Shown here: positions 17,201 to 54,579 of the stretch, one piece after another
Layout of the letters: every line of letters begins with the position of its first letter
Numbering within the stretch: position 1 is the stretch's first letter
Source of the DNA: Oidiodendron maius Zn
Taxonomy: Eukaryota; Ascomycota; Leotiomycetes; Myxotrichaceae
NCBI GenBank assembly: GCA_000827325.1
Contig: KN832872.1
Location: 2,143,747 to 2,207,746, forward strand
Length of the DNA stretch: 64,000 bases
Direction: 5' to 3'
The notes under the pieces: model-generated
Seen by the model: only the letters and a program-made list of their open reading frames with translations
What the model was told of the DNA's origin: nothing
The model's database searches: none
Translations under genes and position numbers: made by a program

Positions 17201-19242
17201 TTAGTATTTGGTGTTCTTAATATCAGCGGCCTGTTTCTCGGCAAGCGTGTCTGTTTTCCACCGTCAGCCTTGACTCTCAACAAACAATGCCAACGTCTGC
17301 TCTCCCGCACTTACAAACTTGGATCTGAGGAGCCGGTCCCGGCGGCAAGAAGGGGAAGGAAGAGGAGTCAATGACTCTCACTGCACGAGGGTTGTCAGCT
17401 GATCTTGCTCTTAGATATTGTTAGGTCTGGCCGGTTCGGGCCACGACTCACATTTCTTCACGCCGAATACCCGGCCGCGGCTGTCAACGACGGCCAAGGG
17501 ATCATCCGCTTTGCCCATCTTGTTGCTGGAGAAGGCATGCTGGAACGGTTGGATGTAACCCCTGAGAAAGTCGAGGATCTGCTCGTCAGTCTGCACTTGC
17601 ACACCAGGGACAGTCTCGGGGCCGATCAAGGCGGGGCCAATGACACTAGACGCGAGGGCTTGGCGGACGCGCTTGAAGCCGGCGAGCATGACATCGACGT
17701 CGGACGGGTGGGTAAACATGGCGGGGTTGATCAATGGGGGGTCGCTGTTGCTTGACGAGGCGATGGACACGTTGCCCACCGACTGCGGTGCGAAGAGGAC
17801 GGCAACCGTGGTGGCATAGTTGCCGCCTGGGACCGGCGGGACGCTCGAGTTGACGAAGCTGCTGGGGATTGCGCTCGGCACGAAGGCGTACGCAATCTCG
17901 GGCCAGTCGGCCGGCAGCTTATCCAGCGCCTGGTTTGTCACTGTGGAGAAGTTTACGCGGAGCTCGGCGGGAATCTTCTCCATAGCCATCTGGTCGCCTC
18001 CGACGCTGGCCAACGGGCCCCTTGCATAGTTGTTGAAATCACTAATGGCTTGTCCCAGATAGGCTGGGTCCTCGAGTTCCGATCCTGTTATCATATTGAC
18101 TTGGTGCGATATGTAGATGACAATGTGCTCCCGGAGGTTCTGGCCAACACCGGGTCGGTCTGCGATGACGGGGATATCTAGGGACTGAAGCAGGGCCTTG
18201 GGTCCGACACCCGACACCATGAGCATTTGCGGGGATTGGAAGACGCCTGCGGACAGGAGAACCTCCTTGCGGGCCGAGATGATGCAGTTGGCACCGACCT
18301 GAACACCGATCGCCTCTTTGTTCCCATTGAAGACAATGCGCTGGGCCATGGTGTTGTTAAAGAGCGCGAGATTCCTCCGGCCGACCACGGGGCGCAAGTA
18401 AGCCGCCTCGGATGAGGAGCGGAAGCCGGTGGTATGGTTGACCGTGTTCATGTGGAACGAGTGCCCCAGGAGATTGCCGTTGATAAATGCATTCACCTTC
18501 TCGATGCCAATGGCTTGCCACGCGACCGAGAGCCACGTGCCCCATGACTGGGCGTAGGCCGGATAGGTAACGGCGAGACCGCCTCCCTCCGAGGTGTCGT
18601 TTGGATCGTACATCGGAGTCGCATTGGCGAAGCGCTCCTGGTTGTCGGGAGGGGTGAAGTTCATCGTCCGGGCATAAAACTCCAACATGTTATCGTACAG
18701 GAAGGAATTGTCGCCGACCGCATCGGCAAACATCTGATGGGCACCTACAGACGAATGCCCGTACGCCATGGAGTTGATGTCGCTACAGCCGCCAAAGGCC
18801 TTTGGCCGAAAATAGGGGCGGGACTGATTGAGTAGCCCCTAGTAAATGGAGTTTAGCCATGCTGGATCTCTCACGAAGGTCCGCGAGAGAACGGGGTGAG
18901 GGGGGGGGGACCGACGCTTTGTGGAGTGGTGCTGAACGGCCACATCATGGGATCCATGGTGTTGTAGAAGTTGCCCGCGTACATGGGAACCTGCGTCCAG
19001 TTCCCATGGACCTCTTCCGGGAAAGTGCCAGCCTCAATGACCGCAACTGTGGTGGCAGGATTCTCCGTGAGCCGGTTCGCCAGAACCAGGCCTGCAGTGC
19101 CTCCACCGATGATCACATAGTCAAATCTCTGGCCTAGATTCGGGTGTGGGCAAGAGGAGGAGGGCACGGAAGGCACTGCGGATGCGGAGCCCAGGAGCAA
19201 CCCCGTTACGAGAAGCAGCGGTCCACAGCCATGACCACGCAT
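17201..19242 (-). CDS. GMC-type FAD oxidoreductase, secretory, catalytic His missing
   Basis: Four exons, 609 aa: 19242-18916, 18838-17452, 17380-17315 and 17250-17201. A signal peptide (hydrophobic LLLVTGLLLGSASA) precedes the FAD-binding IIGGGTAGL. The first intron (18915-18839) contains a poly-C run on the coding strand and restores FGGCSDINSMAYG, the GMC signature region. The two short 3' exons restore the C-terminus (LRVIDSSSFPFLPPG, then YTLAEKQAADI). At the place where GMC enzymes usually have PPG-His-PQ, this protein has PPG-Pro-Ala-PQ (residues 587-588), so the usual active-site base is absent. Family members oxidise alcohols, and secreted forms take part in patulin-type pathways. 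It sits beside P450 20424-21908 in the same orientation and probably belongs to the cluster, with altered or lost oxidase activity. Confidence 0.85.
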
Positions 19243-20423
19243 GATAGATGGTTTGCCTGGTTCCTGATAGCGATAGAGGTGCGGGTGGGACGTGGAAAGA
19301 CAATGGCGGAGGAGTGAGACGGCGACTCGAGTGGCGGGCTCCCGGTTCTATTTCTATTTCTCCCTCGTATGCCAGCGACTCGGCCTCGTCGCGTCAGTCT
19401 CGACACCAACTCTGCCATTACGTACGGGCTAGAACTGAAGGCTTTAAGGTTAGGGGTGCTGGCCAGCCTTTCTGAACCAGCCAGGCAGTCCGCCGTCCGA
19501 GCGTGCTGACGATGACATTCCGCTGGAGAATCCCATTGGGTGTGTGATCCGTGGGAAGGCGGCGCCGCGGCAGGCTTTGTGGAAAGGAGTTACTCAGTGT
19601 CGTGAAGATTGGTGATGTGAGAAGATGCGACTGGCGGGGAGCCAGTATCTGCACGTGAGCTGAAATTCCCCTTCCCGCATGGTTCCAGCTGACGGCACGA
19701 CTACTGTCCGATCCTGCCGCCCCCCGGAATGGGACCAACCCAAGACGGGGGCAGGAGTGGCACCAGATCCTAATCCCAAATCATATGTACCGCAGTAACT
19801 GTGTACCTGACATGGGGGGTTCGTTGACATTCGGCCGCCACGTGGCCGCACCCTGATTCCGAGGGCTTCTCATTTAAATAGATATTGGAGACGGGGTTGT
19901 CAACTGCAATGCACGTGATCCTTCAGGGAAACACGACGCTATCGTTCCCCTTATACTTAAATATACGTAAGATTCTGTACGGCATCAAGTATTTTTGAAG
20001 CTGTTTTGAAGCTGTTTTGAAGACATTTATAGCCACAAAAACACAACGGTTAGGAGGGTGGGGGCGGGGGTTGGTTACGGTTAGTCAGGGGGTTGGAGGG
20101 TGTTTGAATCCCCATATTAGTATACCTTTTGTAAATTAAGTGGTGTCTTGGTAAGGGTAGGCGAAATATGGCCATGGTAGAGCTGAACCCTATATTTACA
20201 GCAGAATAAAGATTAGACGCACATCTTCAAGGTACAGTATGGCATATACATTACACCTGCGTCTCGCTTAAGTCGACATGGGGAGACAGGTTGATAACAG
20301 CACCCAGTATTAGTTAAAAGGGGAACTACCAACCGGGCCACGGTACGACGACGGATTCGAGTTCAACGGTCACAACGAGGAGGAGCAAGCCAAATTGATC
20401 TATCCATTCAGGGCGCGTAAAAA
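19243..20423. other. intergenic between GMC gene and P450
   Basis: Carries the GMC promoter and the 3' flank of the P450. A short tandem repeat (TTTTGAAGCTG units) lies at about 19994-20022, and a strongly G-rich stretch (runs of 3-5 G) at about 20053-20100. I see no gene; the open frames at 19418-19851 show no recognisable domain. Confidence 0.5.
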
Positions 20424-52927: not shown

Positions 52928-53479
52928 GTCTGGCAATTCGTGGATCGTGGACGGGGGATGATGCTCCAGCTGCAAACTGCAAGCAATAGGAACTATGCAG
53001 TGCGGAAGAGATAGAAGGGCAGACAATCATGAGCGAGCCGGACTGGCCTGAGATTATATGCCTATTTAGGCGTGGTGGATTGTGGGATGGGTCAGCCTCA
53101 GCCCTGCACGTGCCGCCCTGGGGTCCGCGAGATTGTTTGCCGTTTGGGGGATAGTGGCGATCAGAAGTCCCAGAGGACCAATCACGGTCATTCCCCATCC
53201 CGGACGGCAGAGAAACGGAGCCTCCGGCAATTCAAAATGCCCGAAGCAGCGTAGGCCGTCAACTGTCAAACTTCCGTCCCGCAGGTAGGCACAATGGGCA
53301 TATCAATTTATCAATTTATCAAAGGCCTATATCAACACCAGCGCGACACTTCTTTGTCTTCCAACCCTTTCTCGTCTTCCCTCTTCCCTCTTCCCTCTTC
53401 CCTCTCACATCTCCATCTCCATTCTCATTCCCATTCCGCAGAACATACAGTACATCGCCGTGAACTCGGCAGCGTCATC
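52928..53479. promoter_or_regulatory. divergent promoter region, regulator / SDR
   Basis: 552 bp between two divergent start codons. A C/T-rich tract with repeated CCCTCTTC units at about 53377-53405 lies in the SDR leader, a common feature of fungal promoters. Confidence 0.5.
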
Positions 53480-54579
53480 ATGGTTGGTTCGAGAGACCTG
53501 ACGCCCTCAAATGATTCATTTGGCAAGATCTTCTTCCACAACCAATTCCGCGCCAAACCGCAATGGCCAGCCCCAAAGACGAGCCTCTTGGGCGCGACGG
53601 CTATCATCAGTGGAAGCAACACCGGGCTGGGTTATGAGGCCGCGACGCAGCTGTTGCGCCTCCAGCTGTCACGTCTGATCATGGCAGTGCGGTCTCGCGA
53701 ACGGGGAGAGGCAGCGGCAGCCAGGCTCCGCAGGCTATTTCCAAAGGCGAGCATCGAGGTCTGGCTGCTGGACATGAGCGAGTATGATTCGGTCCAAGCC
53801 TTCGCCGCCCGTGTCGCGAGAGAGCTGTCCCGTATCGACATTGTCATCCTCAATGCCGGTCTTATCGGCCTCACCTTCAAGGCGGCCAAGAGCACGGGCC
53901 ACGGCGAGCTTCTGCAGGTCAATTATCTCTCGACGGTGCTGCTTGCCATCCTCCTCCTCCCAACACTGAAGGCCAAAGGTCCACCGGGCGGCCAACCCGC
54001 GCACCTCACTATCGTCAGCGCTGCGCTGACGCTGGCGGCCAAGTTCGCCGAGAGGGACTCGATCCCCTTGCTGCCCGCCCTCGACGATCCCAAGAAGTTC
54101 GACCGCGAAGAGACGTACAATACATCCAAGCTACTGGCCCATATGTTCCTCTGGAATCTCGTCGATTATGTCTCCGCCGACGACGTCATCGTCAACCTCG
54201 CCGACCCTGCCTGGTGCAAAGGCACCGACTTGGCGCGCGATGCCACGGGCGGGATGAAGGTGGGTGTAAAGATCTTCGCCGGCCTCACGGGCAGATCCCC
54301 GAGGGTCGGAGCCTCGTGCTTTGTCGACGCCGTGGTGAACAAGGGAAAGGAGTCTCACGGATGTTTCATCATGAGTTGGCAGATCCACCCGTAAGTGCCT
54401 GCGAGTTTTCCCGCTCCTCCTCCTCTTCCTATCCATCGTCCGCTAACGCCTCTCTCAGATTCGCCGCTTACTTATACACGCCCGAGGGCAAGGTGGTCAC
54501 GCAACGGTGTTGGGACGAGACGATGGCAGAGCTTGAGTTCGCTGACGTTCGCACCATCCTAAATTCCATGCGAGGATAA
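53480..54579 (+). CDS. short-chain dehydrogenase/reductase
   Basis: Two exons, 343 aa: 53480-54390 and 54459-54579, with an intron that has a CTAAC branch site. ATG at 53480 was chosen over in-frame 53294 because the upstream part is low-complexity and pyrimidine-rich leader. The cofactor motif GSNTGLG (usual TGxxxGxG) and the following LIMAVRSRERGE favour NADP. NAG, the catalytic Ser region TIVSAAL, and YNTSK with Tyr213 and Lys217 are all present. The length and C-terminal part resemble the retinol-dehydrogenase/WW-oxidoreductase-like fungal SDRs found in many clusters. It probably oxidises or reduces an alcohol or ketone of the cluster product. It marks the likely right end of the cluster. 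Confidence 0.9.

What the first reader, a model, noticed from the sequence alone, without database searches (positions are those of the whole stretch)
17201..54579. Meroterpenoid-like cluster pairing a DMATS-type prenyltransferase with a Pyr4-type cyclase and a methylating NR-PKS
The sequence shows an intact SAT-KS-AT-PT-ACP-CMeT-TE PKS, a soluble ABBA-type prenyltransferase and a Pyr4/PaxB-type membrane cyclase, with P450s, OMT, SDR, GMC, MFS and a regulator. Known DMOA-type meroterpenoid pathways use a UbiA-type membrane prenyltransferase plus an FAD epoxidase before the Pyr4-type cyclase; neither is visible here. If the cluster is self-contained, prenyl transfer to the polyketide would fall to the DMATS-type enzyme, and the cyclase would act on a non-epoxidised or P450-oxidised substrate. 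VrtC of viridicatumtoxin shows that DMATS-type enzymes can geranylate polyketides. This combination is unusual and may be undescribed.
Basis: partly seen in the sequence, partly recalled or inferred. Interest (0 to 1): 0.85.

Follow-up and report, generated by a model that had tools for sequence, protein, structure and literature searches.

The report
Fungal phthalide–terpenoid cluster, mfm-type
This fungal gene cluster probably makes a small ring compound carrying a cyclised fifteen-carbon terpene tail, using a soluble prenyl-transfer enzyme and a membrane cyclase; the same unusual pairing was published in 2024, so this is another member of a known kind.

Summary
No UbiA or FAD epoxidase was found in what was scanned; 10 kb directly right of the window is withheld. 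The DMATS enzyme carries the Gly/Tyr pair that MfmD, a farnesyl transferase, has. Predicted product: a cyclopolic-acid-type phthalide, O-farnesylated, then cyclised. Gene blocks are rearranged relative to the mfm letter order; a 5.6-kb LTR retrotransposon lies between them, and a decayed second hydrolase copy lies beside the DMATS gene. New member of a known kind. The cyclase is only 56-59% identical to the stand-ins for the two characterised ones, so its ring pattern is open.

The parts
   Evidence: PF00753 E=2.8e-9; 72% over aligned columns (68% by BLASTP) to Annulohypoxylon truncatum P0149 and 65% (61%) to Aspergillus pseudotamarii P0178; HNHFDH, GHAIGH, GADACH motifs kept; relatives linked to DMATS genes
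17201..19242 (-). GMC oxidoreductase, counterpart of MfmG (4-exon model; 3' exons less certain)
   Evidence: PF00732 E=2.4e-18, PF05199 E=1e-17 on the main exon; model
20424..21908 (-). cytochrome P450, placed as MfmF by its position beside OMT and DMATS
   Evidence: PF00067 E=1.2e-50; assignment by gene order, inferred
22559..23962 (+). O-methyltransferase, counterpart of MfmE (3 exons)
   Evidence: PF00891 E=8.9e-17
24124..25600 (-). DMATS-type aromatic prenyltransferase, counterpart of MfmD; 3 exons (25154-25600, 24315-25078, 24124-24253), 446 aa, open throughout; Gly262/Tyr363 at the paper's chain-length positions
   Evidence: PF11991 E=2e-64 (on the main ORF); splice sites; residues
26073..26866 (+). 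decayed second copy of the metallo-hydrolase, broken over three frames with stops
   Evidence: tblastn: 121 of 121 hydrolase queries (the window's own plus 120 hits) match here, 390 matches, all + strand; first seen
27829..33439 (+). LTR retrotransposon with 281-bp direct repeats (27831-28111, 33159-33439; 15 differences) and a 5-bp target-site duplication; lies between the two gene blocks (strand follows a pol-like fragment)
   Evidence: Pol_BBD match E=1.2e-4 is below Pfam's cut-off
33903..36038 (+). HET-domain gene between the two blocks, probably not part of the pathway
   Evidence: PF06985 E=1.4e-28
36948..38762 (-). cytochrome P450, placed as MfmA by its position divergent from the PKS (5 exons)
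   Evidence: PF00067 E=4.2e-51; assignment by gene order, inferred
39234..47041 (+). non-reducing PKS, SAT-KS-AT-PT-ACP-CMeT-TE, counterpart of MfmB; 6 exons, 2495 aa
   Evidence: Pfam; motif positions
47372..48212 (-). Pyr4-family transmembrane terpene cyclase, counterpart of MfmH; exons 48037-48212, 47629-47979, 47372-47567; 240 aa
   Evidence: PF25129 E=1.4e-74; Glu66 and Asp220 invariant in 16 full-length rows, the window's included
48790..50411 (-). MFS transporter, 3 exons; no MFS among the mfm genes listed in the paper
   Evidence: PF07690 E=2.3e-44 on the largest exon
51322..52850 (-). fungal-specific regulator, counterpart of MfmI; 5' end not resolved, no zinc cluster in the model
   Evidence: PF11951 E=7e-5; model
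53480..54579 (+). short-chain dehydrogenase/reductase, counterpart of MfmJ (2 exons)
   Evidence: PF00106 E=9.1e-19 on the first exon

Best explanation
A complete-looking mfm-type phthalide-terpenoid gene cluster spanning about 6.4-54.6 kb. Proposed route, by analogy with mfm: the NR-PKS makes 3,5-dimethylorsellinic acid; the PKS-side P450 and the metallo-hydrolase turn it into a hydroxymethyl phthalide; the OMT methylates the 7-hydroxyl; the second P450 hydroxylates C-3 to give a cyclopolic-acid-type lactol; the DMATS-type enzyme O-farnesylates it; the Pyr4-type cyclase protonates and cyclises the farnesyl chain without a prior epoxide; GMC and SDR may tailor further; the MFS protein may export the product. 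Shown here: gene content, open reading frames, family membership, the MfmD-like residue pair, no UbiA or epoxidase in what was scanned. Inferred: every chemical step, the assignment of the two P450s, and that the hydrolase at 6.4 kb is part of the set.
For: All nine mfm enzyme classes (two P450s, NR-PKS, metallo-hydrolase, DMATS, OMT, GMC, Pyr4 cyclase, SDR) occur in one 48-kb stretch (paper). Sub-orders of the mfm letters are kept: G-F-E-D then the hydrolase relic, A-B, H-I-J. The DMATS enzyme has Gly and Tyr at the positions that are Gly257/Tyr357 in MfmD; the stand-ins Annulohypoxylon P0010 (G257, Y357) and Aspergillus bertholletiae P0053 (Y251, C348) carry the paper's residues at the paper's numbers for MfmD and PsetPT. 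Gly+Tyr occurs in 25 of the 120 listed homologues, Tyr+Cys in 49 of 120. Three DMATS hits share a contig length with a cyclase hit; the two that cover the site have Gly/Tyr. 14 of the 120 listed DMATS hits share an exact contig length with one of the 120 listed hydrolase hits, against a mean of 0.15 and a maximum of 3 at shifted lengths; three pairs have consecutive locus tags. Diaporthe, a genus with DMATS, cyclase and hydrolase homologues, is reported to hold tentatively identified drimane-cyclopolic acid ethers (PMC9920373, passages).
Against: MfmA-MfmK were not compared directly; homologues from related species stand in for some. The PKS was not shown to be a DMOA synthase. The hydrolase lies 10 kb from the GMC gene with Myb genes between, and its family is large (1534 hits at E<=1e-40, 120 listed). 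Of the eight named genera with a Gly/Tyr DMATS, three (Cytospora, Rhynchosporium, Hypoxylon) show no cyclase among the 21 hits, which name only one representative each. A promoter k-mer search found no shared motif beyond shuffles. One regulator is clear where mfm has two. No expression data. 10 kb right of the window is withheld.
Confidence: 0.8

Rival explanations
1. Two unrelated neighbouring clusters: a DMATS/OMT/P450/GMC tailoring set (17-26 kb) and a PKS/cyclase set (37-55 kb), brought together by repeat-rich DNA.
For: An LTR retrotransposon and a HET gene separate the blocks; no shared promoter motif.
Against: The nine mfm enzyme classes fall across both blocks. The retrotransposon has a 5-bp target-site duplication (TTAGG, read from the flanks printed), so it is a simple insertion and the blocks stood about 5.6 kb closer before it. 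DMATS and cyclase hits share contig lengths in 3 cases.
Confidence: 0.08
2. The UbiA prenyltransferase and FAD epoxidase act in trans from elsewhere, making this a disguised classical DMOA pathway, with the DMATS enzyme only tailoring.
For: Five UbiA matches and 18 scored FAD_binding_3 matches (of 203 candidates) exist in the genome.
Against: No UbiA match is on this contig. The mfm pathway works without either, and the DMATS enzyme here has the MfmD-like residues.
Confidence: 0.05
3. The DMATS enzyme adds a dimethylallyl or geranyl group, as native or altered PsetPT does, and the cyclase acts on that shorter chain or on another substrate.
For: PsetPT, 54% identical to MfmD, is a dimethylallyl transferase. 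The residue pair was tested by the authors in two enzymes only.
Against: The window enzyme has Gly/Tyr, not Tyr/Cys, at the two positions; the pset cluster lacks a cyclase gene while this one has it.
Confidence: 0.12

Closest known systems
mfm cluster of Annulohypoxylon moriforme (Yan & Matsuda 2024, PMC10882540)
   Same: All nine enzyme classes; DMATS with the Gly/Tyr pair; Pyr4-family cyclase; no UbiA or epoxidase found; letter sub-orders A-B, D-E-F-G and H-I-J kept.
   Different: Order of blocks rearranged relative to the mfm letters; extra MFS gene; intact hydrolase displaced, with a decayed copy beside the DMATS gene; LTR retrotransposon and HET gene between blocks; DMATS 59% to P0010 and cyclase 56% to P0126, the Annulohypoxylon stand-ins (aligned columns).
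ocd cluster of Colletotrichum orchidophilum (same paper)
   Same: Pyr4-family cyclase of the same group; window cyclase 59% to the Colletotrichum stand-in P0124 (that P0124 is the orthologue of OcdTC was not tested).
   Different: The paper says ocd encodes tailoring enzymes absent from mfm; which of these occur here was not tested. OcdTC makes a monocyclic product; the window cyclase's ring pattern is unknown.
pset cluster of Aspergillus pseudotamarii (same paper)
   Same: Homologues of MfmA-F according to the paper; an A. pseudotamarii hydrolase (P0178) is 65% identical to the one here, though its place in pset was not checked.
   Different: pset has no cyclase gene and a dimethylallyl-type DMATS enzyme (Tyr/Cys).
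Classical DMOA meroterpenoid pathways (anditomin as described in the same paper; others recalled)
   Same: Methylating NR-PKS and Pyr4-family cyclase; AndK-type P450 plus hydrolase chemistry for the phthalide in anditomin.
   Different: They use a UbiA-type prenyltransferase for C-farnesylation and an FAD epoxidase; neither was found here.

Membership tests
mfm-type DMATS/Pyr4 phthalide-terpenoid clusters | NR-PKS with C-methyltransferase and TE | tested here: met
mfm-type DMATS/Pyr4 phthalide-terpenoid clusters | DMATS-type prenyltransferase with the MfmD-like Gly/Tyr pair | tested here: met
mfm-type DMATS/Pyr4 phthalide-terpenoid clusters | Pyr4-family terpene cyclase | tested here: met
   PF25129 E=1.4e-74. 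Placement in the paper's own clade by a tree was not tested.
mfm-type DMATS/Pyr4 phthalide-terpenoid clusters | separate P450 (MfmA) and metallo-hydrolase (MfmC) for phthalide formation | tested here: inconclusive
   hydrolase present with close relatives linked to DMATS genes; P450 present, but its orthology to MfmA rests on gene order only
mfm-type DMATS/Pyr4 phthalide-terpenoid clusters | no UbiA-type prenyltransferase and no epoxidase in the cluster | tested here: met
   limits: 10 kb on the right reads N, and in the flanks 2 of 3 (left) and 4 of 8 (right) listed ORFs were scanned
mfm-type DMATS/Pyr4 phthalide-terpenoid clusters | OMT, second P450, GMC and SDR present | tested here: met
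mfm-type DMATS/Pyr4 phthalide-terpenoid clusters | two regulators (MfmI, MfmK) | tested here: inconclusive
   one Fungal_trans_2 protein; Myb genes at 8.9-13.2 kb not tested as MfmK
mfm-type DMATS/Pyr4 phthalide-terpenoid clusters | product is an O-farnesyl phthalide, then cyclised | not testable with these tools
   needs chemistry
UbiA-type DMOA meroterpenoid clusters | UbiA prenyltransferase and FAD epoxidase in the cluster | tested here: not met
   10 kb right of the window unseen

The most novel reading that the evidence does not exclude
The cyclase, 56-59% identical to the stand-ins for the two characterised enzymes of its kind, folds the farnesyl chain into a ring pattern not yet reported for phthalide-terpenoids, and GMC, SDR and the P450s then build a new scaffold.
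Probability: 0.3. Interest if true: 0.45.

Novelty: new member of a known kind. Interest (0 to 1): 0.3.

Why it matters
It adds a complete-looking and rearranged member to a recently defined class in which a soluble DMATS enzyme, not a UbiA membrane enzyme, feeds a Pyr4-type cyclase. It offers a diverged cyclase for testing how ring pattern is set, and shows an MfmC-type hydrolase as an intact displaced copy together with a decayed second copy beside the DMATS gene. It also points to a possible genetic basis for the drimane-cyclopolic acid ethers tentatively reported from Diaporthe.

Tried and rejected
A search for shared promoter motifs (8 upstream regions, k=6-9 and CGG-gap-CCG) gave nothing clearly beyond shuffles. 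PDB sequence search of the DMATS ORF found only distant DMATS relatives (best 9iia, E=3.8e-17), and of the TE only generic esterases and lipases. Paper searches listed, beyond PMC10882540, no other study of this cluster type that I recognised from titles and abstract starts; PMC11109268 mentions it in one passage. A second Pyr4 homologue on C20 was looked at: of 12 other listed ORFs in the 20 kb around it, 3 were scanned and none is a PKS, UbiA or DMATS; the genome-wide UbiA and DMATS searches put none on C20. The other two DMATS genes (C14, C26) were not studied. No structure was predicted. The cyclase tree was not built. The genome's species was not identified.
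Full report
What is there. The window lies at C3:2143747-2207746 of a 45.9-Mb, 58-contig genome; introns and database hits suggest a filamentous ascomycete, species not identified. I built gene models from the DNA and refined them against homologues. The PKS model has 6 exons and 2495 aa; the usual active-site motifs, which I recognised from memory in the translation, sit in the expected domains. 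The DMATS gene has three exons; its last exon was hidden from an ORF reading and ends in the C-terminus shared by the family. The cyclase has three exons, 240 aa, and Glu66 and Asp220 are invariant in 16 full-length rows including the window's (that these are catalytic in Pyr4 is recalled).

A metallo-hydrolase gene at 6372-7594 (-) is intact. Over aligned columns it is 72% identical to a protein of Annulohypoxylon truncatum and 65% to one of Aspergillus pseudotamarii (68% and 61% by BLASTP). Elsewhere in this genome the best other matches are 41-46% identical. Its relatives travel with DMATS genes: 14 of the 120 listed DMATS hits (129 found) share an exact contig length with one of the 120 listed hydrolase hits (1534 found), against a mean of 0.15 and a maximum of 3 when lengths are shifted, and three such pairs carry consecutive locus tags (Monosporascus DL770_009539/009538, Penicillium fimorum N7463_009525/009524, Caloplaca Q9219_006845/006846).

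The published counterpart. Yan and Matsuda (Chem Sci 2024, PMC10882540; I read the outline and parts 1-3 of 4; supplement not seen) describe the mfm cluster: MfmA P450, MfmB NR-PKS, MfmC metallo-hydrolase, MfmD DMATS, MfmE OMT, MfmF P450, MfmG GMC, MfmH Pyr4 cyclase, MfmJ SDR, and regulators MfmI and MfmK. In A. oryzae the pathway ran from DMOA through cyclopolic acid, O-farnesylation by MfmD and epoxide-free cyclisation by MfmH; MfmG and MfmJ were not needed for the product. They counted 24 of 182 PKS-bearing Pyr4 clusters with a DMATS gene and no UbiA-like gene, also lacking an epoxidase. Whether this window's cluster is one of the 24 is not known. Nine of nine mfm enzyme classes have a counterpart in the window, plus one of the two regulators. 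If the mfm letters follow gene order (an inference), the window reads C ... G-F-E-D ... A-B-H-(MFS)-I-J.

Chain length. The paper assigns farnesyl versus dimethylallyl transfer chiefly to MfmD Gly257 versus PsetPT Tyr251 (with Tyr357/Cys348 alongside). The A. truncatum homologue P0010 has G257 and Y357 and the A. bertholletiae homologue P0053 has Y251 and C348, the same numbers, so the register looks secure. The window enzyme has Gly262 and Tyr363 there. Among the 120 listed homologues 25 have Gly/Tyr and 49 Tyr/Cys; Gly does not occur without Tyr. Three DMATS hits share a contig length with a cyclase hit; two cover the site and both are Gly/Tyr, the third is gapped there. Against a strict rule: of eight named genera with a Gly/Tyr enzyme (Cytospora, Diaporthe, Colletotrichum, Monosporascus, Rhynchosporium, Stachybotrys, Annulohypoxylon, Hypoxylon), three (Cytospora, Rhynchosporium, Hypoxylon) have no cyclase among the 21 hits; those rows name one representative each, so absence is not shown.

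Cyclase. The window cyclase is 56% identical to the Annulohypoxylon nitens homologue P0126 and 59% to the Colletotrichum homologue P0124, which are 57% identical to each other; the paper gives 56% between MfmH and OcdTC. Closer relatives exist but are unnamed or uncharacterised here (P0121 76%, P0122 69%, Monosporascus P0129 67%, Stachybotrys P0123 63%). The window enzyme could follow either fold pattern or a third.

UbiA and epoxidase. Five UbiA matches in the genome, none on C3. FAD_binding_3: 18 of 203 candidates scored, nearest on C3 about 0.56 Mb away. The 20 kb left of the window is AT-rich; of its 3 listed ORFs 2 were scanned and one is a retrotransposon gag. On the right, 0-10 kb reads N; of 8 listed ORFs at 10-20 kb 4 were scanned and hold NACHT, ankyrin, DUF7791 and BTB domains.

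Structure of the locus. The AT-rich gap is an LTR retrotransposon, 27829-33439, with 281-bp repeats differing at 15 sites, all transitions, and the flanking pentamer TTAGG on both sides. Eleven other copies span the whole element at 89-93% identity and two more nearly so; 40 of 136 candidates were scored, so this is a lower bound. RIP-like composition meets my threshold only at 1-4 kb. Between the DMATS gene and the element lies a decayed hydrolase copy: 121 of 121 hydrolase queries match 26073-26866 on the + strand, over three frames with stops. No relic of eight other cluster proteins was found in the window or in L014, L015 and L017; only the two P450s matched each other. The relic's place beside the DMATS gene fits the mfm letter order C-D, so the copy at 6.4 kb may have taken over; which copy is older is not known.

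Links to chemistry. Passages of PMC9920373 report, by mass spectrometry and tentatively, over twenty-five ethers of altiloxins (drimanes) with cyclopolic acid and related phthalides in the Diaporthe eres complex. Diaporthe species have homologues of the DMATS, cyclase and hydrolase. That such clusters make those ethers is my inference.

Against. No co-expression data; no common promoter motif; P450 assignments rest on gene order; the PKS product is unproven; a second mfm-like regulator was not identified; the mfm proteins themselves were not compared.

Verdict. A real, complete-looking cluster whose mechanism was well guessed but is already published. New member of a known kind; interest 0.3.

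Noticed in passing
window 26073-26866 (+): Decayed second copy of the MfmC-like hydrolase beside the DMATS gene, while an intact copy stands at 6372-7594.
   Followed up: yes
window 27829-33439: LTR retrotransposon with 5-bp target-site duplication; eleven other full-span copies at 89-93% identity and many single repeats elsewhere in the genome.
   Followed up: yes
window 8879-13242: Two Myb-domain genes on opposite strands between the hydrolase and the GMC gene; the second spans several ORF pieces and was not modelled well.
   Followed up: partly
window 56174-57580 (-): Erythromycin-esterase-family gene (PF05139, E=3.1e-138) just right of the SDR; role in the cluster unknown.
   Followed up: no
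window 6372-7594, 24124-25600, 47372-48212: Unnamed metagenome proteins match the hydrolase (P0142, 97%), DMATS (P0007, 98% over 55%) and cyclase (P0139, 97% over 25%), so a very close relative has been sampled in the environment.
   Followed up: no
G000:C20:376708-377476 (L006, L010, L018, L019): Second Pyr4-family cyclase gene in the genome; the 3 of 12 neighbouring ORFs scanned include no PKS, UbiA or DMATS.
   Followed up: partly
L014-L015 (20 kb left of the window): Long AT-rich stretch (20-46% GC per kb) with a retrotransposon gag fragment; the cluster sits near its edge.
   Followed up: partly
L017 (10-20 kb right of the window): NACHT/ankyrin and DUF7791 genes, a kind often linked with fungal self/non-self recognition (recalled).
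   Followed up: no
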